Positions 32,122 to 41,925 of a DNA stretch of 64,000 bases are shown piece by piece. Position 1 is the stretch's first letter; each line of letters starts with the position of its first letter. The notes beneath the pieces were generated by a model that was given only the letters and a program-made list of their open reading frames with translations, was not told the origin of the DNA and searched no databases. The stretch spans positions 115,540 through 179,539 of the forward strand of contig OMZM01000001.1 of NCBI GenBank assembly GCA_900315545.1. The letters are read 5' to 3'. The position numbers and the translations under genes were made by a program. Source of the DNA: an uncultured Prevotella sp. GTDB taxonomy: Bacteria; Bacteroidota; Bacteroidia; Bacteroidales; Bacteroidaceae.

Positions 32122-33528
32122 TCATACACTGATACTATCCACGACTTCGATTTGATATTCTGCCATCAATTCTTTTGTACTAATGTCGTAATATAAGTTG
32201 AAGTCGTCAAATGCTATATACGTGGCAGCCTCACCATCAGCTGTGTCTTTGAATGACATCACACCTGCATTACTGTTGAATCCAACCTCTTCCAAAAGAC
32301 TGTTCAAAGACTTTGGTACTCTGTAGTATGTCGTCTCATCCTTGCTGATGTAGATATGGTCGCTGGTAATTGCGGCCAACGATATGATGAAGTCGTAGTC
32401 ATCACTTGCATGGCTGTCAGTTTTCTCATATTGTCCGCTGTCTAACAGGCTTTGGAAAAAATCTTCTTTCTCGCTGCTTCTCAGCTGTCTGAGGGTGAAC
32501 CATTGCCCGTCAGCCGATTGTGGACTGAAGGTAATGATAGCATCCGAATAGCCTTCACTACCAGCTTGAATATGGCAGTCGAGATAGGCAAATAGATTGT
32601 TGGGCATCTTCTTGCCTGAGACAAGATAACGGATGGCGTGAGGGTGGATAACAAGCGCCATGATGCCATCCCCCAGCCGGTAGAACTTCATAAAGAACTT
32701 CGTAAACACTAAGGATTTTCGGCTGCTGTCTGCTTGATAGCGGTAAAGATGATACCCATTGGCGATGCTTTCAAACTGCCAGAATACAGTAGAGAACTCA
32801 TTTTCAGTCCAGATGCCGTCCACCTCTGGGTCAAACTGGTTTTCAAGCAGCTCCTTGTTGCTTATGCTGATGCGTTCTCTCGTGGAGAGGGCACCAAACG
32901 AGTTCAGAATCAGATTGGCTGTACTGATAAGATGTAGCCTACACATGTTGTCTGGATGACGCCTTACCTCGTCCTCCATCTGGGTAAGCATCGGGAGCTT
33001 CTGCATCATAATATCCTTATTGACCGTTTCCGACAGCCAACAGAACAGGCGGCGATAGTCTTGGCGGATGTCTCTCACGTCGCCACCCTTGGCCGACAGA
33101 CGGGGCAGCAGTTTGAGGACGAGCAAGACGAGAACAGGCAACTGCTCTGCTTCCACCTTGTTTATAATAGGTGCAATATCCTCGGTAGCCTCTGCGTCTG
33201 AATAGAAATACCACACGAGATGCTGGCAGAACAATGCAGGGTTTGCCACATTTCCCATTCGCTCACAGATGCGGTCTGCACCGATATACGCATCGAGCAC
33301 TTCTTGTAGGTCAAGGTCAGTATCCTGTTTGGCGATGTGTGCCAGCTCCCTCAGGATGGCATCCTTCATGAAGAGCGACTTGCCGCCCTTCCTCGCTAAG
33401 CCGTTACCACTGCCGACAGAGAATCCCACCAGCCGTTCCAACTCCTCTGTGGTATTCTTCAGCAGGCGTGTCCGTTCTATCATGCGCAGATAGCCACATA
33501 CCCGTTCCATCTTGTCCGTCTTGTCCAT
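32122..33528 (-). CDS. hypothetical protein, 468 residues
   Basis: I do not recognise this protein. It is soluble and mostly helical in its first 200 residues. An N-terminal segment (ERLVGFSVGSGNGLARKGGKSLFMKDAILRELAHIA, about 28-63) could be a DNA-binding or regulatory helical unit. The C-terminal half is mixed alpha/beta with many aromatic residues (VFWQFESIANGYHLYRYQ, FFMKFYRLGDGIMALVIHPHAIRYL). There is no signal peptide, membrane segment or catalytic motif I can name. A -7-like box (TAATTTTG, minus strand, 33548-33555) lies 20 bp upstream. It sits at the left of the accessory region, divergent from the structured RNA region and the eight-gene operon. Confidence 0.8.
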   Translation of the reverse strand: MDKTDKMERVCGYLRMIERTRLLKNTTEELERLVGFSVGSGNGLARKGGKSLFMKDAILRELAHIAKQDTDLDLQEVLDAYIGADRICERMGNVANPALFCQHLVWYFYSDAEATEDIAPIINKVEAEQLPVLVLLVLKLLPRLSAKGGDVRDIRQDYRRLFCWLSETVNKDIMMQKLPMLTQMEDEVRRHPDNMCRLHLISTANLILNSFGALSTRERISISNKELLENQFDPEVDGIWTENEFSTVFWQFESIANGYHLYRYQADSSRKSLVFTKFFMKFYRLGDGIMALVIHPHAIRYLVSGKKMPNNLFAYLDCHIQAGSEGYSDAIITFSPQSADGQWFTLRQLRSSEKEDFFQSLLDSGQYEKTDSHASDDYDFIISLAAITSDHIYISKDETTYYRVPKSLNSLLEEVGFNSNAGVMSFKDTADGEAATYIAFDDFNLYYDISTKELMAEYQIEVVDSISV

Positions 33529-34010: not shown

Positions 34011-34994
34011 ATGGAGACAAAGACCACGCTAAAAGCATTGTTTGAAAGTCGTAGGGATGAACTATCGCAAAAACTGGCAAATTTGTCATTACCCAAAGAT
34101 GCCGCATTAGTTCAACAGATTGTATCAAACTATCTGAACGATTTATTTGACTCTGAGGGGGACTACCGTCAGAATCTAACGCAATCTGAAGACTACATCC
34201 TTCAAGCAGCGATGTCACTGCTTAATGCCCAGCAATCGATGGCGAGCGAGTTTGCAAAAAGCAACACTATATGGATTACTGATGGCAAGCATCAAGAAGA
34301 ACAGCTTAATGCCAAATTTAAGACTTTGAGTGAAACTGCTATGTTGAAGCCACAGGAATACCCATACGTTATAGGCGGCTCTGCTGTTGGAGGAGTTGCT
34401 GGAGCATTGCTTTTGGGCAGCTGGGGAGCAGTGTTCGGTGCTATTGCAGGAACAGCATTGGAACTTTACTATTCTACCATCACGGGGCAGCTACAAAGAA
34501 AAGCTGTTTCAGATTTGAAGCCTGTTCAGGTTAATGCAGGAAACAGTCTGTCCAAGGAAACTGATGTTAATCTCGACACTGGGATATTCTTAGGGATCGT
34601 TGGTAATATTTGCGATAGCGTAGATTCTCTTATACAGACATTCCGAGCTCAAATCAACCGAGTAGTTGACAAATACGAGAATGTGGAAAAACCTCGTTTG
34701 GAAAAGGAATACAGTTTCCTGTTAGAAGGTATACAGACTCTTATCGGATACAAACGGACTCACACTAATGATGACAAATACCTTTCAAAACTACAAATGA
34801 GAATAGAAGACCTGGCCGAAGCGCTTGAAAACTATAATCTATCTGTGGAAGAATATGTTGAAGAGCATTCTGGATGGTTTGAGACCGTTGAAAGTACAAA
34901 AGTCGAAACGCCACAAATGGTCTATCCCGCAATTGTCAAGGAAGGGCAGGCAGTTCTTTCTGGTAAAGTATTTGTACCCGTAAAACAAGAGTGA
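34011..34994 (+). CDS. glycine-zipper membrane-associated protein (operon gene 1)
   Basis: 327 residues from ATG 34011; an in-frame ATG 30 bp upstream is possible but less likely. Residues 1-115 are helical and charged. Residues about 120-150 form a glycine/alanine-rich hydrophobic stretch (VIGGSAVGGVAGALLLGSWGAVFGAIAGTALEL) with the GxxxG-type spacing of glycine zippers, suited to helix packing in membranes. The remainder is helical (DSLIQTFRAQINRVVDKYENVEKPRLEKEY looks coiled-coil). No enzymatic motif and no signal peptide. It is the first gene of a tightly spaced operon; gene 2 starts 6 bp later. I recognise no family. Confidence 0.85.
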   Translation: METKTTLKALFESRRDELSQKLANLSLPKDAALVQQIVSNYLNDLFDSEGDYRQNLTQSEDYILQAAMSLLNAQQSMASEFAKSNTIWITDGKHQEEQLNAKFKTLSETAMLKPQEYPYVIGGSAVGGVAGALLLGSWGAVFGAIAGTALELYYSTITGQLQRKAVSDLKPVQVNAGNSLSKETDVNLDTGIFLGIVGNICDSVDSLIQTFRAQINRVVDKYENVEKPRLEKEYSFLLEGIQTLIGYKRTHTNDDKYLSKLQMRIEDLAEALENYNLSVEEYVEEHSGWFETVESTKVETPQMVYPAIVKEGQAVLSGKVFVPVKQE

Positions 34995-35000
34995 TTTATT

Positions 35001-35288
35001 ATGAAAAACAAAATAGTAGCAGGTCTTTTAGCTATATTTTTAGGGGGCTTAGGTGCTCATAAGTTTTATTTCGGGAAATGGTTCCAGGGATTCATCTATT
35101 TGATCTTTTGCTGGACGGGAATTCCTGCAATCGTCGCTCTTATTGAAGGCATCTATTACTTCTTTATGAACGATGATGATTTTCAAGAAAAATATGGAGG
35201 AGTCGACAAAAGCCACCAATCATCATCCACATACTCTACAGGTAATAACATGAAATCAACTATAGGATCACGACTAATAAACAAATAG
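35001..35288 (+). CDS. TM2-domain protein (operon gene 2)
   Basis: 95-residue small membrane protein with a TM2 domain: two hydrophobic helices with the typical pattern IVAGLLAIFLGGLGAHKFYFGKWFQGFIYLIFCW, then GIPAIVALIEGIYYF. The acidic DDDDFQEKY and a polar tail follow. TM2 proteins are small helical-hairpin inner-membrane proteins of unknown biochemical role. They recur beside stress, secretion and defence genes. It lies 6 bp after gene 1 and 7 bp before the Hsp70-like gene. Confidence 0.93.
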   Translation: MKNKIVAGLLAIFLGGLGAHKFYFGKWFQGFIYLIFCWTGIPAIVALIEGIYYFFMNDDDFQEKYGGVDKSHQSSSTYSTGNNMKSTIGSRLINK

Positions 35289-35295
35289 TTACATT

Positions 35296-37221
35296 ATGAC
35301 AGACAAAGAAAAGAAACAATACGAATATGTTATAGGCATAGATTTAGGTCATGGTGAGACATCTGCTGCACTATGTCCACTACAATGGGATGTCCTTCCC
35401 AGTCAGTTAGATCCTGCAAAGGACTTGGAAATGGGAGGAAACAAGAAGGTTATGCCTTCGGCTATCACCATCCTTGATAATGGTAATGCATACATAGGCG
35501 ATGCTGCATTCAATCCTGAGATACTGCGCCAAGCCGAAGTTAGAGTTTGCTTCAAGAAGGCACCAAAAGACATCAACGGTGATGCTGAGCAATTGATGAT
35601 TCGCTTCATGAAAGAAGTCTATAAGCGAATCCGTGAAAGTAACTCTGGCCTGCTGACAGACTCTAATCATCTTGTTTATATAGCGACACCGTCTGGATGG
35701 GACAAACCCACGCAAGATTTGTATCTTCAAATGGCAAAGATGGCGGGAATCCCAATAGCAGGACTGACCAAGGAGTCACGAGCAGCTTTTGTTAGGGCAC
35801 AACACGATACAACATCAGGAATAGGGCGAAATATAGATAAGGGGGCTATCGTTTTTGATATGGGGTCTTCCACTTTGGACTTTACCTATATGAACAAGAA
35901 CCTTCCAGAACTGATTGATTTCGGCTATGATTGTGGCGCATCTGCTGTCGAGAAGACAATTTATTCAAAGAAACGAGAAGAAGAGGAAAGCATAAAAGAG
36001 TTTGAAGCAAAATTCCCAAGACTTATAGACTACCTTGTGTTTGAAGCAAGAAAAGTTAAGGAACAAATATATATAGATCCAACTCTACGAGTTAAGAAAA
36101 CCATTAACTTTGAAGATATTGTTGATGACGACGACTTGGAGGACGAACGTTTCCGCTTAGTATTCCACCCTGGTGACTTGAATAATCTTCTAACAGAGAA
36201 AGGCTATATCCAGCAAATCGCTGATGCAATGGCCGACTATCGTGAGAACCATATCAAAGGACAGAATATTTATGGAGTATTCATGACAGGAGGTGCTTCA
36301 AGAATGGATTTTTTAAAACCTTTGATATGTCATTACTTTGGAGTACAAGAAAGTCAGGTTTATAGAGACCAAGACCCCTCGTTAACAATATCCCAAGGTG
36401 TTGCAGAGGTCGCCAGAATGGATCTTAGGACGGAAGGAATGGATGTTGGCATAGGTAGTCAGATTGATAACCTTATCAATGGAAACAAGATTTTCGATGC
36501 ATTTTCGGAAAAATTCTGTTCAGAGGCATTTGAACTTGCAACACAGATAATTGCCACCAATGTCACTACATTTAAAGACATTGATAATGATGTCAGTATT
36601 GACGATTTAAACTCAAGTATAGATTCCGATATGAAAGAACATTTGGGAGAACTCACCTCAAATGTCTCAGAATATGTAAGAACAGCAATTTTGGATAGTA
36701 CTGCTGAGATAAGGAAAAAAGTTGATGATATAGTTTCAGTATATACAAATCAAGGGAATGACATCAGGTTACCCAGCCTAAATGTTCCAAGAATTTCAAT
36801 GGGAACTATTAGTATTAAGCCTGTTCTTGACAGAATAGCCAAAGACTCTGCTGAACAAGCATCCACATGGAGTAGTGGAGGTGCAGCAGCGGGTGCTGCT
36901 GCAGGCGCCGCTATAGGTAGTGTTGTACCTTTCTTTGGAACTTTGACGGGTGCTTTAATTGGAGGTGCCATTGGAGCCTTTAGTGGCGACAAACCTACTT
37001 TAGAGCAAGAAAAGGCAAAAAATAGGAATCGTGATGAGCGTCTCAAAATCTTTAATCTAATTGTTTCTGAGTGGGACAAAATTCAAAATGATGTCAGAAA
37101 CACAATTAATGGGAACGTAAAGGGGAACAATAACATACGTCAAACTGTTAGGAAGGTCACATCAGACTATTTGACAGCATATAAAGACAGCCTCCAGAAT
37201 TCACGCATACTTATTGACTAA
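35296..37221 (+). CDS. Hsp70/actin-fold ATPase with C-terminal glycine zipper (operon gene 3)
   Basis: 641-residue protein. An Hsp70-type nucleotide-binding domain spans about residues 10-380. Seen: phosphate-1 YVIGIDLGHGETSAAL (11-26), VYIATPSGWDKPTQDLY, phosphate-2 GAIVFDMGSSTLDFTYM, and the adenosine motif GVFMTGGASRMDFLKPL. There is no recognisable DnaK substrate-binding domain. Instead a helical region leads to residues 526-565, a glycine-zipper/hydrophobic hairpin (GGAAAGAAAGAAIGSVVPFF ... GALIGGAIGAFSGD), then a charged helical tail. It is therefore probably an ATP-driven, membrane-tethered switch rather than a general chaperone. Confidence 0.88.
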   Translation: MTDKEKKQYEYVIGIDLGHGETSAALCPLQWDVLPSQLDPAKDLEMGGNKKVMPSAITILDNGNAYIGDAAFNPEILRQAEVRVCFKKAPKDINGDAEQLMIRFMKEVYKRIRESNSGLLTDSNHLVYIATPSGWDKPTQDLYLQMAKMAGIPIAGLTKESRAAFVRAQHDTTSGIGRNIDKGAIVFDMGSSTLDFTYMNKNLPELIDFGYDCGASAVEKTIYSKKREEEESIKEFEAKFPRLIDYLVFEARKVKEQIYIDPTLRVKKTINFEDIVDDDDLEDERFRLVFHPGDLNNLLTEKGYIQQIADAMADYRENHIKGQNIYGVFMTGGASRMDFLKPLICHYFGVQESQVYRDQDPSLTISQGVAEVARMDLRTEGMDVGIGSQIDNLINGNKIFDAFSEKFCSEAFELATQIIATNVTTFKDIDNDVSIDDLNSSIDSDMKEHLGELTSNVSEYVRTAILDSTAEIRKKVDDIVSVYTNQGNDIRLPSLNVPRISMGTISIKPVLDRIAKDSAEQASTWSSGGAAAGAAAGAAIGSVVPFFGTLTGALIGGAIGAFSGDKPTLEQEKAKNRNRDERLKIFNLIVSEWDKIQNDVRNTINGNVKGNNNIRQTVRKVTSDYLTAYKDSLQNSRILID

Positions 37222-37226
37222 TTATT

Positions 37227-39986
37227 ATGGACAGAGAATTACAGGCATTAGAACCTGTAGCAAAAGCACTTGCTGCAACTGCGGTTTCACAGACACTATC
37301 TTTCTGTATGGAGCGCAAGTATCTTCAAGACATAACAAGTGAAGACAACCAGTTGTTCGAGATAGAGGCACTGCCATCCACATCCATTACTCAGGCCACT
37401 TGGATAGAGGTACAGCAGGTAGGCAGACCTTTGGAAAAGTCTGCTGAAAGCTGTTTTACGGCTATTCAAAAGATACTATTCTCCTGCTTTCTACCGAAAG
37501 AAATACAGCTACTTTTCCTTGTTACAGGAAACGGGCAAGAGAACAAACTGTATCTTGGTTTACGCTCTCCACATAAAGCCATTCCGCCAAAAAGTATGGT
37601 AAGGAACTTGAATGAATTTATCAAAGGTGTGTGGCCAGGTCTGCAAACAGAAATTGTCAGCGAGAATGATCCTGCATTGGAGCAACTCAAGCACGAAGTA
37701 AAAACTGATGCATTTGAATATACTTATGCTCTTACAGGCATCCCTTCAATGGAGAGCCAATACAAAACATTATATCCTGCCACAATAGACAAACTTATTT
37801 CAGGGACAAGTCAGTGCAAGCATTTTGCCTATCTTGTGGTAGCTGACCCAATAGAGCAAGGAGATGCGGAAGGGATGCTATATCAATGCCGAGAAATGAA
37901 CGGACAAGCGGAGTCACTGAAATCGATGAATGTAACGGAAGGCCTTTCATCTGGAACATCTTCCACACAAAGTGTTTCACATACAGACGGAACAAGTACG
38001 AGTCATAGTGTAAGTGTGTCAAAAAAGGACTTCAGCAAACTAGGTAAGCTTGCAATGACTGCAACGGGATTAGGAACGGCAGCCACCTTTTTTCCCGCTG
38101 CGGGTGCTGTTCTTGAAGGAATGACGGATGCAGCCGGAAGTGTTGCTGCGGCTGCTGTAGGAATGATGGCAGGAACCATGGCCTCTAATGTGATAAGTGG
38201 TATGATGCCACAAAAAACAGTATCTGATACAGAAGGAACCAATAGTAGCGATACGACTTCCACTTCGCATAGTACAACTGAAAATAAATCACAGAGTATA
38301 AGTCGTAATATTGTCAATAAACACATCGAGGCTGTTTCAGAACATCTGTTCTATCACTCTAAGCGCATAGAATCAGGCAAAGCAGTAGGGCTATGGAAAG
38401 TTGGCACCTATATCATGGCAGACAAGAAATCTGATTTGCAAGGTGCTGGGTTACAACTTCGTTCAATTTTAAGCGGACAAGAAAGTATTTTTGAGCCAAT
38501 AAGATTGCATGATATAACGGGGGTGCTAGAAGAAGAACCAGAAAAAGGTAAAACGTACAAAAATCTTACTCTAGGAGAATTAGCTTCCCCCATTCTTGTT
38601 GTGAACAACGTCAAAGGAAAGCGTTTTGACCACCCTCTCGGCGAACACTATAAAGAGCTGAAGACTGTCTTAACAACAAAAGAACTATCATACCTTATTA
38701 ATTTCCCATTGCGGAGCGTTCCTGGAATTAGTGTCGTTGATAGTTGTCCTGAATTTAATCTAAATCCTCAGAGTTCAGCAGAATTCGAACAATCTTTTGC
38801 TTTCGGGAAATTACTTTATGGAGGATCTGAAACCAAAATACAATATCGAATCCCATTTGCTTTGTTATCACGCCACACTCTCATCTCGGGTATCAACGGC
38901 AGTGGCAAGACGAATACTATACAGGCCATTCTGAATCAATTAGGCGAACTGCCATTCCTCGTGATAGAACCTGCTAAGACAGAATATGTAGATTGGGCTT
39001 TGGAATACAACAAGGCACATCCAGAATCTCCCATATCCATCTACATCCCTGGATGTAAAAAATACAAAGGGACATTTGGTCCCAAACCTCTGAAGCTAAA
39101 TCCCTTTGAAATAGTTTGGCTGAAACCAGAGCAGGAGGTGAACGTCCTGACGCATATAGACCGTCTGAAGTCAACTTTTGCCGCCGCTTTCCCCATGTAC
39201 GACATACTGCCTGTACTGATGGAGGATTTGATTTACACTGTTTACCAAAATAAATCTACCGATTGGCTGAACTGTAATCCTGTCTATGGAAAGACATTGG
39301 CACCTACACTGAACAGCATGAGCATCTGTGTAGATCAGGTGATAGAGCACAGGCAGTATGAAGACAAGGTGCAACGCAACATGAAAGCCTGCCTGAATAC
39401 ACGAATTGACAGTCTGAAGCGAGGCTGGAAGGGCGATCTGCTGAACACACCTAAATCTACACCATGGAACGAGGTGTTTGGACGGAAATGTGTCATCAAT
39501 CTCTCTTACGTAGGTGACGATGTTGACAAGTCATTCCTCATGGCTCTGCTGCTGCAATATTTATACGAATATCGTTCTGCACAAACTGAAATCGGAGAGA
39601 TTGACTTCAACGAAAACGGATGTAAGCACCTGACCGTCATTGAAGAAGCGCACCGCGTAATGGCAAAATGCGAGAATCAGGAGCTACCCCAATACAAGTC
39701 GGCGATGATGTTCAGTAATATGCTCTCCGAAATCCGTGCTTATGGCGAGGGGCTTATGCTTGTTGACCAAGTGCCGACGCGTTTGATTCCAGATGCCATC
39801 AAGAATACAAACCTGAAGATTACACACAGGCTTGTGGCAGAAGATGACTGCAAGGCCATAGGCGAATCTATGGGACTGAGCGAGGAACAGCGTAAGGTTA
39901 TGCCCAAACTAATGACAGGGCAGTGCATTGTGTCAAGTTCTCTTGCAACTGATACGTATTGGGTAAAAGCAGATAAAGTGAAGTGA
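37227..39986 (+). CDS. HerA/FtsK-type ATPase with hydrophobic insert (operon gene 4)
   Basis: 919-residue protein. The C-terminal third is a HerA/DUF87-like motor. Seen: Walker A GINGSGKT at residues 555-562, the FLVIEPAKTEY segment, Walker B HLTVIEEAHRVM with Glu806/Glu807, a sensor-like MLSEIRAYGEGLMLVDQVPTRLIPDAIKNTNLKI, and ITHRLVAEDDCKAIGESM typical of VirB4/HerA proteins. An insert at about residues 270-327 (ATGLGTAATFFPAAGAVLEG ... AAAAVGMMAGTMASNVISGMM) is hydrophobic and glycine-rich, flanked on both sides by Ser/Thr-rich linkers. The N-terminal 250 residues match nothing I know. It likely pumps DNA or protein at a membrane. Gap to gene 3 is 5 bp. Confidence 0.9.
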   Translation: MDRELQALEPVAKALAATAVSQTLSFCMERKYLQDITSEDNQLFEIEALPSTSITQATWIEVQQVGRPLEKSAESCFTAIQKILFSCFLPKEIQLLFLVTGNGQENKLYLGLRSPHKAIPPKSMVRNLNEFIKGVWPGLQTEIVSENDPALEQLKHEVKTDAFEYTYALTGIPSMESQYKTLYPATIDKLISGTSQCKHFAYLVVADPIEQGDAEGMLYQCREMNGQAESLKSMNVTEGLSSGTSSTQSVSHTDGTSTSHSVSVSKKDFSKLGKLAMTATGLGTAATFFPAAGAVLEGMTDAAGSVAAAAVGMMAGTMASNVISGMMPQKTVSDTEGTNSSDTTSTSHSTTENKSQSISRNIVNKHIEAVSEHLFYHSKRIESGKAVGLWKVGTYIMADKKSDLQGAGLQLRSILSGQESIFEPIRLHDITGVLEEEPEKGKTYKNLTLGELASPILVVNNVKGKRFDHPLGEHYKELKTVLTTKELSYLINFPLRSVPGISVVDSCPEFNLNPQSSAEFEQSFAFGKLLYGGSETKIQYRIPFALLSRHTLISGINGSGKTNTIQAILNQLGELPFLVIEPAKTEYVDWALEYNKAHPESPISIYIPGCKKYKGTFGPKPLKLNPFEIVWLKPEQEVNVLTHIDRLKSTFAAAFPMYDILPVLMEDLIYTVYQNKSTDWLNCNPVYGKTLAPTLNSMSICVDQVIEHRQYEDKVQRNMKACLNTRIDSLKRGWKGDLLNTPKSTPWNEVFGRKCVINLSYVGDDVDKSFLMALLLQYLYEYRSAQTEIGEIDFNENGCKHLTVIEEAHRVMAKCENQELPQYKSAMMFSNMLSEIRAYGEGLMLVDQVPTRLIPDAIKNTNLKITHRLVAEDDCKAIGESMGLSEEQRKVMPKLMTGQCIVSSSLATDTYWVKADKVK

Positions 39987-39989
39987 CTT

Positions 39990-40820
39990 ATGGACAGCCT
40001 TGAGAATATTGAAAGAGAGTATGAGCAGACGGAATGTACAGAAGTGGAGGATTTAAATCCATTACAGATAGACTATCTACGTGAACTAGAGATTACTCCT
40101 GAAGCTTGGGAGTCGATGGGTTTACAGGCTCAGGATGAACATCTGGGGCTCGTTATGCACAGGTTCCAGGAACTGAAACTGCCACACCAATTCAACCTTA
40201 AGCAATGGATAGGTAATATATTCGGTTCCAAGATAAAGGAATCTTACGAACGCATTGAGGCTCCGCAAGATCATATCCAAATTGAGCAAATATCAGAAAT
40301 CCTTTCCGATTGCAAAGAACTGCGATTTGAGAATTGGTGCAATCTGGAACTATCTGAGAGAATGGATGTGTTGAATACTCTTGAGGCGCGAATAGCGGAA
40401 ATAGAACATCGTCCTGCCTGTCCAGTGAATTACGATGCGTCAATGGGAGGTATTCAGATTTACGGTGATAATGTGTATGGACACCTTGGAGGCTATAGTC
40501 AAGAATCAAAAGACATTACTCTTAATTCAAATCTGGTAGAGAGCAATGACCCTACTGCATACTTGGAGGTAATAGACACGATAGTCCATGAAGGTCGCCA
40601 CGCATATCAGGACTACAACATCCATGTTTGCGAGATACATCCGCGTCACAGCGAGGTCGCCAGTTGGGCAGAGACAATGGGTGATGGGAAATGGCGGTAC
40701 TGGGGGGATTGTAGCACAGAGCTTGGGCAAAGACTTTACGAGCAGCAATCTGTAGAGATTGATGCACGTAACTTTGCTGCTGATATAAAAGAAAAGATAA
40801 CTGATAAATTGTTTGCATGA
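39990..40820 (+). CDS. putative zinc metallopeptidase (HExxH) (operon gene 5)
   Basis: 276-residue soluble protein with a zincin motif, IVHEGRHAYQDY: His200, Glu201, His204 would be two metal ligands and the catalytic Glu. EQQSVEIDARNFAAD (Glu256) fits a downstream glutamate third ligand, as in gluzincins. The N-terminal 140 residues are helical and acidic. There is no secretion signal, so it acts in the cytoplasm unless carried by the ATPase. Family not identified. Its presence in a tight operon with an ATP-driven complex suggests an activated effector or a processing enzyme; this is inference. It ends in a 4-bp ATGA overlap with gene 6. Confidence 0.85.
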   Translation: MDSLENIEREYEQTECTEVEDLNPLQIDYLRELEITPEAWESMGLQAQDEHLGLVMHRFQELKLPHQFNLKQWIGNIFGSKIKESYERIEAPQDHIQIEQISEILSDCKELRFENWCNLELSERMDVLNTLEARIAEIEHRPACPVNYDASMGGIQIYGDNVYGHLGGYSQESKDITLNSNLVESNDPTAYLEVIDTIVHEGRHAYQDYNIHVCEIHPRHSEVASWAETMGDGKWRYWGDCSTELGQRLYEQQSVEIDARNFAADIKEKITDKLFA

Positions 40821-41104
40821 TGAAAGAAAAGATATATCTAATATTAAAAGAAAGAGGATACAGCGAGTATTCAGCCAAGTTGGCGACTACGGATTTAATG
40901 CGTCTTTCTGGTCCTTTGGATAAAATGTTGCGAGCATGGTTGGACAACGAAAGGGAACAGCCAGATTATTCGTATGGTGGTTACTCTATTCGTAGGCTTC
41001 AACATGAACGTGGTATGAAATACCCTGCTGCATTGTTAACAATGGATTGGTTGATGAAAGAGCCAGAGAAAGCAAAAAGAAGTTTGACTAAAGGAATAAA
41101 ATAG
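40817..41104 (+). CDS. small hypothetical protein (operon gene 6)
   Basis: 95-residue basic, helical protein (MMKEKIYLILKERGYSEYSAKLATTDLMRL ... RRLQHERGMKYPAALLTMDWL) without membrane segments. The first two codons are both Met, and the ATG overlaps the gene 5 stop, indicating translational coupling. The YSEYSAKLATTDLMRL segment looks like a short helical interaction domain. It may be an immunity, adaptor or specificity partner of the metallopeptidase, but nothing in the sequence proves this. Confidence 0.7.
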   Translation: MMKEKIYLILKERGYSEYSAKLATTDLMRLSGPLDKMLRAWLDNEREQPDYSYGGYSIRRLQHERGMKYPAALLTMDWLMKEPEKAKRSLTKGIK

Positions 41105-41107
41105 GAA

Positions 41108-41359
41108 ATGGCACAATTTGTAATAACTCCCAAAAGTACAATCCAGTTTGGACCAGGATTAGACCCCATCAGACCCGGCAGAGAAAATGAAAGATTGGTG
41201 TCTGTCAATGTTACTGGCATAACCCCTACAACTCTTTTTACACGCTATAGTGCCCGTTCTATCCTTGCTGACCAACTAAACAGAGCATACGGTACGACAG
41301 GGTTTACACCAGAAAATGTCATACGCTATGGAGGACAATTCCAAATAAGGGGTATTTAG
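41108..41359 (+). CDS. small hypothetical protein (operon gene 7)
   Basis: 83-residue protein starting 3 bp after gene 6. It is beta-rich and proline/glycine-containing at the N-terminus (VITPKSTIQFGPGLDPIRPG), then RLVSVNVTGITPTTLFTRYSAR and a GFTPENVIRYGGQFQIRGI end. No motif or membrane segment recognised. Its conserved-looking spacing (stop directly followed by the ATG of the next, truncated gene) supports it being a real operon member. Confidence 0.65.
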   Translation: MAQFVITPKSTIQFGPGLDPIRPGRENERLVSVNVTGITPTTLFTRYSARSILADQLNRAYGTTGFTPENVIRYGGQFQIRGI

Positions 41360-41521
41360 ATGGCGACTTCGGCTTCAGCAATCATGGGAATTTCTGGCGG
41401 TTTGGCCATGCTGGGCAAAGTGAATGACGTGTGCTTCAATATTACCTCACGATGTTTGCGGGGCGCCATTTCTCTGGCACTTCGTAACGCTTGGTGCCGT
41501 CGGTTACCACGTCGGGCATAA
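41360..41521 (+). pseudogene. truncated operon gene 8 (about 27 genuine codons)
   Basis: An ATG directly follows the gene 7 stop with no gap. The first 27 codons (MATSASAIMGISGGLAMLGK, then VNDVCFN) look like the start of another protein with a small glycine-rich hydrophobic N-terminus. From about 41442 the frame runs antisense to the 3' end of the NYN gene, an unrelated recognisable sequence, and stops at 41521. The original gene was therefore cut at about 41440 by recombination or deletion, and its full-length form is missing here. Confidence 0.6.
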
Positions 41522-41925
41522 TGGCATCGCGGAAACGGCGTTCATTCTTATACATAAGAACTGGTTTGCTGCTATGATGCATGAGGTTATCTTTCAGGTC
41601 ACAGCTAAAGTTTGATGGCGGGAAATAGACTTTGATTCGCTTCTCTGGGTATTGCTTTTGAATGAACTCTAAGGGTGGAACAAGATCGCTGTCGGCACTG
41701 ACGAGCACAATGGTATCTGTAGCGTCAAGCACGCAGTCGGCAATCATCCTCACGGAAATATTCACGTCGGTTTTCCACTTCCTGTCCTTCGCCAAGAAAT
41801 CCCTGGCAGAGTTTCACCATGTTAATCCAGTAATAGTCACCCCACTGCGGTTCGTTGCGCTTGGTGCGACGAAGACCATAGTAGAAGTTGAATCCGTCAA
41901 TGTAGAATGTTACGCGTTGTGCCAT
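41442..41925 (-). pseudogene. NYN (PIN-like) nuclease-domain gene with internal deletion and frameshift
   Basis: Two frames together make a NYN/LabA-type protein. The N-terminal part from ATG 41925 reads MAQRVTFYIDGFNFYYGLRR ... KLCQGFLGEGQEV; the C-terminal part in another frame reads KTDVNISVRMIADCVLD, IVLVSADSDLVPPLEFI, KRIKVYFPPSNF and ends 41442. The first catalytic Asp (IDGFNFYYG) and the SADSD motif are both present. The roughly 60 codons normally separating EGQEV-type and TDVNIS-type segments are gone and the frame is broken at about 41775. Probably inactive. Confidence 0.8.

What the first reader, a model, noticed from the sequence alone, without database searches (positions are those of the whole stretch)
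34011..41521. Eight-gene operon combining Hsp70-like ATPase, HerA-type ATPase, TM2, glycine-zipper and HExxH peptidase
Seen: seven intact genes plus a truncated eighth, all plus strand, gaps 6, 7, 5, 3, -4, 3 and 0 bp, so one transcription unit. Established: Hsp70 fold, HerA/DUF87 motor, TM2 and zincin motifs are identifiable. I know no described defence, secretion or toxin system with this set (not Dnd/Ssp, BREX, HerA-SIR2 or HerA-nuclease pairs, as no SIR2, nuclease or methylase is present). Inference: the Hsp70-like protein and membrane partners could form a sensor, the HerA-like ATPase a motor, and the peptidase an effector. Anti-phage or envelope-stress function is plausible.
Basis: partly seen in the sequence, partly recalled or inferred. 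Interest (0 to 1): 0.88.

Follow-up and report, generated by a model that had tools for sequence, protein, structure and literature searches.

The report
Plug-in toxin operon around HerA motor
A gut bacterium's seven-gene operon belongs to a family of gene sets in which one motor protein related to DNA pumps links a membrane-associated energy-using protein to an exchangeable weapon or cargo, here probably a metal-dependent protein-cutting enzyme.

Summary
In detail: seven tightly spaced plus-strand genes at 34011-41359 and a 54-codon remnant, on a low-GC island. The block g1-Hsp70-HerA is real: of 21 mapped loci with this Hsp70 beside HerA, 20 have a g1 relative and 18 carry the same HExxH protein downstream. 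TM2 is an extra.

Comparison explains the last genes. In relatives with a dynamin-like GTPase instead of Hsp70, the gene after HerA encodes colicin-type DNase/HNH toxins (WHH, LHH, AHH), in several followed by a SUKH immunity gene. So that position is an effector slot, and g5 sits in it. The nuclease types are scattered over the HerA tree, WHH as much as random. A natural chimera (L039, single-contig genome) has an Hsp70-type HerA N-half behind Hsp70/g1, and a dynamin-type ATPase half before a dynamin-type effector. HerA therefore looks like a hub: N-half with the membrane NTPase, motor half with the effector. Some variants add a radical-SAM enzyme and a Cys-rich peptide.

Function is inferred: a toxin-bearing conflict system. 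Export to rivals versus phage-triggered self-intoxication is open, as is whether the zincin is weapon or processing enzyme. Ten paper searches listed no description of this arrangement.

The parts
34011..34994 (+). g1: 327-aa protein with a glycine-rich hydrophobic stretch; conserved partner gene
   Evidence: Relative before Hsp70+HerA in 20 of 21 mapped loci; profile match to the small hairpin partner of the dynamin-type operons, hhalign 91.7%, E 8e-7
35001..35288 (+). g2: TM2-domain membrane protein (95 aa), accessory
   Evidence: Pfam TM2 E 5.4e-19; by motif pattern otherwise seen only in L107, directly upstream of another HerA
35296..37221 (+). g3: Hsp70-like ATPase (641 aa) with C-terminal helical region and glycine zipper
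   Evidence: HscA-type match E 9e-7, below cut-off; three ATPase motif patterns; weak LeoBC match of residues 392-624, E 8e-8
36877..36987 (+). g3 residues 528-564: glycine zipper, putative membrane hairpin
   Evidence: Pfam Gly-zipper_Omp E 1.4e-5, just above cut-off
37227..39986 (+). g4: HerA/DUF87 motor (919 aa), proposed hub of the system
   Evidence: DUF87 E 1.2e-5; 18-sequence alignment; tree
37227..38303 (+). g4 N-half (about residues 1-359), the half that goes with the Hsp70/g1 partner
   Evidence: Natural chimera L039; L033/L036 switch at residue about 359
38889..38912 (+). g4 residues 555-562: Walker A GINGSGKT
   Evidence: G555, G558, G560 and K561 invariant in 18 of 18 sequences
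39990..40820 (+). g5: HExxH zincin-type putative metallopeptidase (276 aa) in the effector slot
   Evidence: Homologue downstream in 18 of 21 Hsp70-type loci; fused to a sub-threshold Colicin-DNase/WHH domain in L088
40587..40601 (+). g5 residues 200-204: HEGRH
   Evidence: HExxH in 20 of 20 cluster members; E256 and D258 invariant in 13 of 13 aligned
40817..41104 (+). g6: 95-aa conserved companion of g5; candidate immunity or adaptor
   Evidence: Relative found in 14 of 21 Hsp70-type loci (13 by clustering, L003 by tblastn) and in L044, L091 and L110 with other ATPases or partners
41108..41359 (+). g7: 83-aa small protein, probable member of the small family that follows g6 elsewhere
   Evidence: Same position and similar start (MAxF) as 9 relatives; the window copy itself was not joined to that cluster
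41360..41521 (+). remnant ORF (54 codons), cut where the NYN gene begins
   Evidence: Sequence read

Best explanation
The operon is one version of a modular, toxin-bearing conflict system built round a HerA-type motor. A membrane-associated NTPase unit (here Hsp70-like g3 plus glycine-hairpin g1; elsewhere a dynamin-like GTPase plus a g1-related hairpin protein) works with the N-terminal half of HerA. The C-terminal HerA ATPase ring handles the protein encoded next to it. That protein is the effector or cargo: a zincin here, colicin-type DNases (some with SUKH immunity genes) in relatives, and in some variants a zincin with a Cys-rich peptide and a radical-SAM enzyme. In the window, ATP cycling of g3/g1 would switch or dock HerA at the membrane, HerA would unfold, pump or release g5, and g5 would cut a target protein (or process a partner), with g6/g7 as immunity or adaptor. 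Shown by sequence: the co-conserved block, the effector slot, its varied content, and the coupling of HerA halves to partner and effector in natural chimeras. Inferred: motor action on the effector, membrane docking, direction (out of the cell or inside it), and the roles of g6 and g7.
For: Block: 20 of 21 mapped loci with Hsp70[1] beside HerA have g1; 18 of 21 have the g5 zincin family downstream, one a second zincin family, two end at a contig edge. Slot: five of ten proteins scanned pass Pfam cut-offs for Colicin-DNase/WHH (L093 6.6e-34, L098, L051), LHH (L094 3.8e-18) or AHH (L097 9.6e-12). The next gene is SUKH in L093 and L094, 2 of the 5 next genes scanned, and annotated SMI1/KNR4 in L048, L052 and L054. 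Zincin with toxin: L098 (second zincin + WHH), L088 (weak WHH + g5-type zincin); separate WHH gene downstream in L033. L093, L095 and L097 effectors share an [IV]DDxAIA N-terminus, by eye, before different C-termini. Tree, 31 labelled rows: WHH needs 5 changes for 5 rows, as scattered as shuffled labels; AHH 2 for 2; LHH 2 for 3; second zincin 3 for 4; the Hsp70/dynamin partner needs 1. Chimera L039, one-contig genome: HerA residues 1-240 and 320-460 fit Hsp70-type (234 and 160 bits, best dynamin-type 44 and 35), residues 470-870 fit dynamin-type (298 and 197 bits, best Hsp70-type 111 and 86), with Hsp70/g1 upstream and the second zincin downstream. L033/L036 switch at residue about 359. g1 is profile-related to the dynamin-type hairpin partner.
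Against: No functional data. g5 passes no Pfam cut-off (best DUF3920, 0.0015) and its model (pLDDT 72) has no significant PDB match (best jannalysin, E 0.81), so substrate and toxicity are unknown. The g5 zincin family itself needs only one change on the tree: swapping is seen in the dynamin branch, hardly in the Hsp70 branch. The ten-class effector count of 12 changes is at least 9 by construction and was set aside. Partner type is not fixed either: the sister cyanobacterial HerAs L027 and L028 have an AAA and a GTPase gene upstream. Median identity of dynamin-type effectors (20%) is not far below that of the hairpin partner (26%). Four of ten proteins scanned had no Pfam match at 0.01, and three of five next genes no SUKH match. 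g6 has a conserved C-terminus unlike most immunity proteins (by eye). The g4 model failed (pLDDT 45). Hsp70[1] occurs without a detected HerA in L029, L043, L044 and L045.
Confidence: 0.57

Rival explanations
1. Anti-phage (abortive infection) system: g3/g1 sense infection at the membrane, HerA is activated, and the zincin (or DNase in relatives) kills or arrests the infected cell; the immunity protein restrains it before infection.
For: PADLOC HerA, mads_8, DndH and LeoBC profiles match the cores of these proteins. A relative lies beside a DUF2357 gene with csm6 nearby in L050, resembling the extended CoCoNuT operons of PMC11090510 (section 10, read). WYL-domain genes lie upstream in L046 and L054 by annotation.
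Against: Neighbours are not clearly defence islands: of 92 scanned, no PADLOC family shown (25 of 62 listed) matched more than 2 (no control). Dedicated immunity genes are typical of toxins aimed at other cells (recalled; also the theme of PMC3482391, passages read).
Confidence: 0.35
2. The zincin is a processing enzyme, not the weapon: like the metallopeptidase of FxSxx-type peptide systems or the PVC-type processing peptidase, it cleaves a toxin or modified peptide to release it.
For: It occurs after a radical-SAM gene and a Cys-rich peptide gene (L041, L042, L090) and fused to or upstream of WHH domains (L088, L033). Precedent: PMC7159879 section 24 (read).
Against: In the window, L002, L030, L031, L032 and L035 I recognised no peptide precursor or nuclease gene next to the zincin; only some of those neighbours were scanned against Pfam.
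Confidence: 0.3
3. Part of a conjugative or DNA-transfer apparatus (HerA as coupling or VirB4-type ATPase, as in CedD).
For: CedD-type match E 1e-21, below its cut-off (77 against 600 bits); 44 plasmid records hold a HerA match, and relaxase genes lie near the one in L047.
Against: No relaxase or pilus gene among g1-g7; 25 of the 44 plasmids are typed non-mobilizable; the gene after HerA is a toxin or peptidase where it could be identified.
Confidence: 0.04
4. Envelope-stress or protein quality-control operon (chaperone plus protease) without a conflict role.
For: An Hsp70-like ATPase plus a protease is a quality-control combination (recalled).
Against: Patchy distribution of g4 (28 of 399 family genomes, 4 of 295 of the order, 2 of 395 of the phylum, each count including the window's own genome), low-GC island, toxin and immunity genes in relatives.
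Confidence: 0.06

Closest known systems
[quoted passage not shown]
   Same: FtsK/HerA ATPase with its own N-terminal domain, a variable insert and a small partner gene. The L050 HerA beside a DUF2357 gene is 30% identical to g4 over 57% of the query. That L050 is the published variant is my inference.
   Different: No McrBC-like GTPase, DUF2357 or VWA protein recognised in g1-g7; here Hsp70, g1 and a zincin instead
Polymorphic toxin systems with HNH/Colicin-DNase toxins and SUKH immunity (PMC3482391, passages read)
   Same: Varied C-terminal toxins and, in some loci, a following SUKH gene in dynamin-type relatives
   Different: No known export domain found; the gene is tied to a HerA motor with a membrane NTPase; the window's effector is a zincin
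GTPase-, HSP70- and peptide-processing conflict systems (PMC7159879, passages and section 24 read)
   Same: NTPase/HSP70 module plus zincin-like metallopeptidase and, in variants, a radical-SAM gene and small peptide
   Different: No MoxR-vWA or GTPase partner recognised in g1-g7; a HerA hub is not described in the passages I read
HerA-SIR2, HerA-nuclease, Dnd and MADS defence systems
   Same: HerA ATPase core: PADLOC HerA/mad8/DndH profiles match, and seven PDB HerA/DUF87-type sequences match the g4 profile (I did not check which systems they come from)
   Different: Partners and effectors differ; no SIR2, nuclease or modification gene in g1-g7
LeoABC bacterial dynamins
   Same: Weak profile match of the g3 C-terminus and of dynamin-type partners
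   Different: g3 is an Hsp70-like ATPase; profile comparison of its family with the dynamin-type GTPases gives 0.5% probability

Membership tests
Polymorphic toxin system | Effector gene with variable toxin domain | tested here: inconclusive
   Met in dynamin-type relatives (WHH, LHH, AHH in 5 of 10 proteins scanned); in the window g5 has no toxin-family match
Polymorphic toxin system | Adjacent immunity gene | tested here: inconclusive
   SUKH in 2 of 5 next genes scanned and annotated in L048, L052 and L054; g6 and g7 match no immunity family
Polymorphic toxin system | Known export or trafficking domain | tested here: not met
   None among Pfam matches of the ten effectors scanned or of g5
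CoCoNuT (Type III-A) | CnuB/McrB GTPase and CnuC/DUF2357 | tested here: not met
   None among g1-g7 and the three neighbour ORFs scanned
HerA-SIR2 / HerA-nuclease / Dnd / MADS defence | Partner SIR2, nuclease or modification genes | tested here: not met
   None in g1-g7; NCBIfam HerA_antiphage match far below cut-off (29 against 800 bits)
FxSxx-type peptide-processing system | Small precursor plus radical SAM plus zincin | tested here: not met
   No radical SAM in the window operon; an analogous set occurs in L041, L042 and L090 (Pfam radical SAM shown for L042)
Hsp70 family | ATPase phosphate and adenosine motifs | tested here: met
   All three simple motif patterns present in g3; HscA match E 9e-7, below cut-off
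Zincin metallopeptidase | HExxH plus downstream acidic third ligand | tested here: met
   HExxH 20 of 20; E256 and D258 13 of 13; metal binding and fold not confirmed

The most novel reading that the evidence does not exclude
HerA is a plug-in hub: a class of conflict systems in which one motor accepts interchangeable membrane NTPases on its N-half (Hsp70-like, dynamin-like, others) and interchangeable cargoes on its ATPase half (metallopeptidase, colicin DNase, modified Cys-rich peptide), forming a previously unrecognised route of toxin delivery or of triggered self-intoxication.
Probability: 0.45. Interest if true: 0.87.

Novelty: new variant of a known kind. Interest (0 to 1): 0.74.

Why it matters
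If true, a set of operons now labelled only 'DUF87' or 'ATP-binding protein' in gut bacteria, cyanobacteria, spirochaetes and plasmids becomes readable: the gene after HerA is the weapon or cargo, and the genes before it are the trigger or membrane module. It would link HerA motors, otherwise known for DNA handling, to toxin proteins. It would also give a natural case where Hsp70-like and dynamin-like machines stand in for each other, and point to new metallopeptidase effectors and modified peptides.

Tried and rejected
Structure of g4: pLDDT 45, so not searched. Structure of g5: pLDDT 72, no significant Foldseek match (best E 0.81). Empty-site test: in 18 stretches from same-genus genomes (18 of 38 genomes with a match to the 917-aa flanking gene, the window's own included), the other flanking gene was not found, so no empty site was seen. 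E. coli survey of effector swapping: the L052 HerA gene occurs in 1 of 5426 genomes, so nothing could be compared. Divergent 468-aa gene family against a second family of about 470 aa: a first comparison was invalid because one sequence was on both sides; the repeat gave 2.6%. Dynamin origin of g3: 0.5%, rejected as homology despite a weak LeoBC match. The tree also contains the chimeric HerA proteins, and is a quick tree without bootstrap. Acidic N-terminus of the first gene after HerA: median net acidity 6.0 in 47 loci against 2.0, 0.0 and 0.5 for second, later and upstream genes; rows are related, and at least L046 and L048 are gene-calling artefacts, so it is only suggestive. Leader similarity of Cys-rich peptide and zincin: shuffle fractions 0.19, 0.002 and 0.02 in three loci, suggestive only.

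Rows dropped: six weak g3 matches (of 23 genomes) were not mapped. L042 was left out of the tree because its HerA is interrupted. L038 and L040 end at contig edges and have no effector label. Eight of 40 tree rows have no partner label. A5 holds 92 of the 207 neighbour proteins listed. Ten paper searches listed no paper on this arrangement; most subscription papers are not in that library.
Full report
What is there. The island is 40-45% GC in surroundings near 50%. g4 and g5 each have one match in the window's genome (2.29 Mb, 92% complete). g3 is an Hsp70-like ATPase (HscA-type match 9e-7, below the curated cut-off; motif patterns) with a C-terminal glycine zipper. g4 is a HerA/DUF87 ATPase, g2 is TM2, g5 has HExxH. 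g6 and g7 have no significant family match.

Is it a unit? g3 has matches in 23 of 301 genomes of the family, of which six weak partial ones were not mapped. g4 has matches in 28 of 399 (E 1e-30 or better), and is rare beyond: 4 of 295 in the order and 2 of 395 in the phylum. Each count includes the window's own genome. Close copies also lie on two contigs of the viral collection. The gene maps hold 21 loci with this Hsp70 type beside HerA. 20 have a g1 relative before it (not L042). 18 have the g5 zincin family after it, one (L039) has a second zincin family, and two (L038, L040) stop at contig ends. g6 is found in 14 of 21 (13 by clustering, L003 by tblastn). In eight complete sets the gap from g3 to g4 is 1-10 bp, from g4 to g5 1-11 bp with one of 261 bp, and from g5 to g6 -59 to 15 bp. 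Four loci with the Hsp70 type had no HerA detected in the stretch read (L029, L043, L044, L045). By motif pattern the TM2 gene is in the window only; another TM2 gene adjoins the distinct HerA of L107.

What the position after HerA means. More distant HerA relatives sit in operons whose partner is a dynamin-like GTPase plus a small hairpin protein (L093-L099), or a pair of genes annotated as dynamins (L051, L052, L054). Of ten proteins after HerA scanned (eight from dynamin-type loci, two from Hsp70-type loci), five pass the Pfam cut-offs for Colicin-DNase/WHH, LHH or AHH. L088 has a sub-threshold Colicin-DNase/WHH match fused to a g5-type zincin. L095, L096 (first gene), L099 and L039 had no match at 0.01; the last three carry a second zincin family by sequence comparison. 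Of five following genes scanned, L093 and L094 are SUKH, and L095, L097 and L098 are not; SMI1/KNR4 is annotated in L048, L052 and L054. Effectors of L093, L095 and L097 share an [IV]DDxAIA N-terminus by eye but differ at the C-terminus. This is the pattern of polymorphic toxins with immunity genes, and the window's g5 occupies the same slot.

Other cargo. L041, L042 and L090 put a MORN protein, a radical-SAM protein and a 79-94-aa peptide with repeated Cys/Gly motifs before the zincin (Pfam radical SAM and MORN shown for L042). Cyanobacterial plasmids carry a different HExxH protein with a Cys-rich tail, near a DUF692 gene (L027, L028; Pfam for L027). These two sister HerAs have different upstream NTPases, an AAA gene and a GTPase gene, so the partner can change as well.

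Diversity numbers. In the seven family dynamin-type loci, median pairwise identity is 45% for HerA, 34% for the dynamin-like protein, 26% for the hairpin partner, 20% for effectors and 9% for the following genes (21 pairs, 15 for the last). In eight Hsp70-type sets it is g4 65, g3 47, g1 45, g6 44, g5 36, g7 33 (28 pairs each). On a tree of 40 HerA proteins (quick method) the Hsp70/dynamin label needs one change in 32 rows. On 31 rows with known cargo, WHH needs five changes for five rows and AHH two for two, the most possible; LHH needs two for three rows (18 of 300 shuffles as low) and the second zincin three for four (49 of 300). The g5-type zincin needs one change for 19 rows (0 of 300). 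So nuclease cargo is scattered, and the g5 family stays with the Hsp70 branch.

HerA as a hub. L039, from a genome held as one contig, is a natural chimera. HerA residues 1-240 and 320-460 are 48% and 56% identical to Hsp70-type L038 (234 and 160 bits; best dynamin-type 44 and 35). Residues 470-720 and 720-870 are 61% and 68% identical to L103, whose partner lies off its contig, and 62-65% to dynamin-type L054 and L051 (298 and 197 bits; best Hsp70-type 111 and 86). The tail 871-1028 is only weakly similar to anything. Upstream are Hsp70 and g1, downstream the second zincin family, otherwise seen in L096, L098 and L099. L033 and L036 switch at HerA residue about 359: the 7.7 kb downstream are 95.6% identical, upstream matches 64-69%. 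Both come from fragmented assemblies, so this case is weaker. The g1 family is related by profile to the hairpin partner of the dynamin type (91.7%, E 8e-7). The reading is that the N-half travels with the NTPase partner and the ATPase half with the effector.

How it probably works. Shown by sequence: the conserved block, active-site motifs, the slot and modular exchange. Inferred: g3/g1 dock or gate HerA at the membrane, HerA moves or releases g5, g5 cuts a target or processes a partner, g6/g7 protect or adapt. Whether the effector leaves the cell or acts inside is undecided. Immunity genes argue for the first, and HerA with CoCoNuT-like company (L050; PMC11090510 section 10) for the second. 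Among 92 neighbour proteins, none of the 25 PADLOC families shown (of 62 found) matched more than two (no control).

Against this reading. g5 has no significant family or fold match. g6 has a conserved C-terminus unlike most immunity proteins (by eye). Cargo variety is in the dynamin branch. No experiment exists. The radical-SAM loci fit a processing role for the zincin equally well, as in the FxSxx systems of PMC7159879 (section 24, read).

Novelty. I read passages of PMC7159879, PMC3482391 and PMC11090510 and one section each of the first and the last; all other papers I saw only in search listings with the start of the abstract. None of the ten searches listed this arrangement. I report it as a new variant of a known kind, NTPase-driven toxin-bearing conflict systems, and not as a member of any named family.

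Noticed in passing
window 32122-33528 (-): 468-aa gene of no known family, divergent from the operon; relatives lie near HerA operons of both partner types in L088, L089, L094 (in pieces) and L097. A candidate regulator or shared neighbour.
   Followed up: partly
window 41442-41925 (-): Frameshifted NYN-domain gene (PADLOC HEC-09) at the right border of the island; the remnant eighth ORF runs into it.
   Followed up: no
L106:3247-4980: EF-Tu-like GTPase gene with all three EF-Tu domains directly upstream of g1; L033 carries an EF-Tu domain 2 protein downstream of g7, as does L036 by near-identical sequence.
   Followed up: partly
L041:8761-9000, L042:4903-5187, L090:3937-4185: Cys-rich repeat peptides (CxCxxGCGxNY type) beside a radical-SAM gene: candidate modified peptides.
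   Followed up: partly
L043, L044, L045: g3-type Hsp70 lies near an AAA ATPase gene with no HerA detected in the fetched stretch; zincin (L044, L045) and g6 (L044) relatives also occur there.
   Followed up: no
L107:5892-13801: TM2 gene, HerA, then a run of genes with similar N-termini by eye; one protein looks SMI1-like by eye, but Pfam found no match.
   Followed up: no
L100, L101, L104, L110: A third HerA type (about 890 aa), with an acidic repetitive protein downstream in L101; in L110 it is followed by zincin and g6 relatives.
   Followed up: no
L033:16245-17906 and L091:13294-15270: AAA ATPase genes lie beside the HerA operons (Pfam AAA for the L033 protein); the L091 protein resembles by eye the AAA protein of L043-L045. 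L091 holds two zincin-g6 pairs.
   Followed up: no
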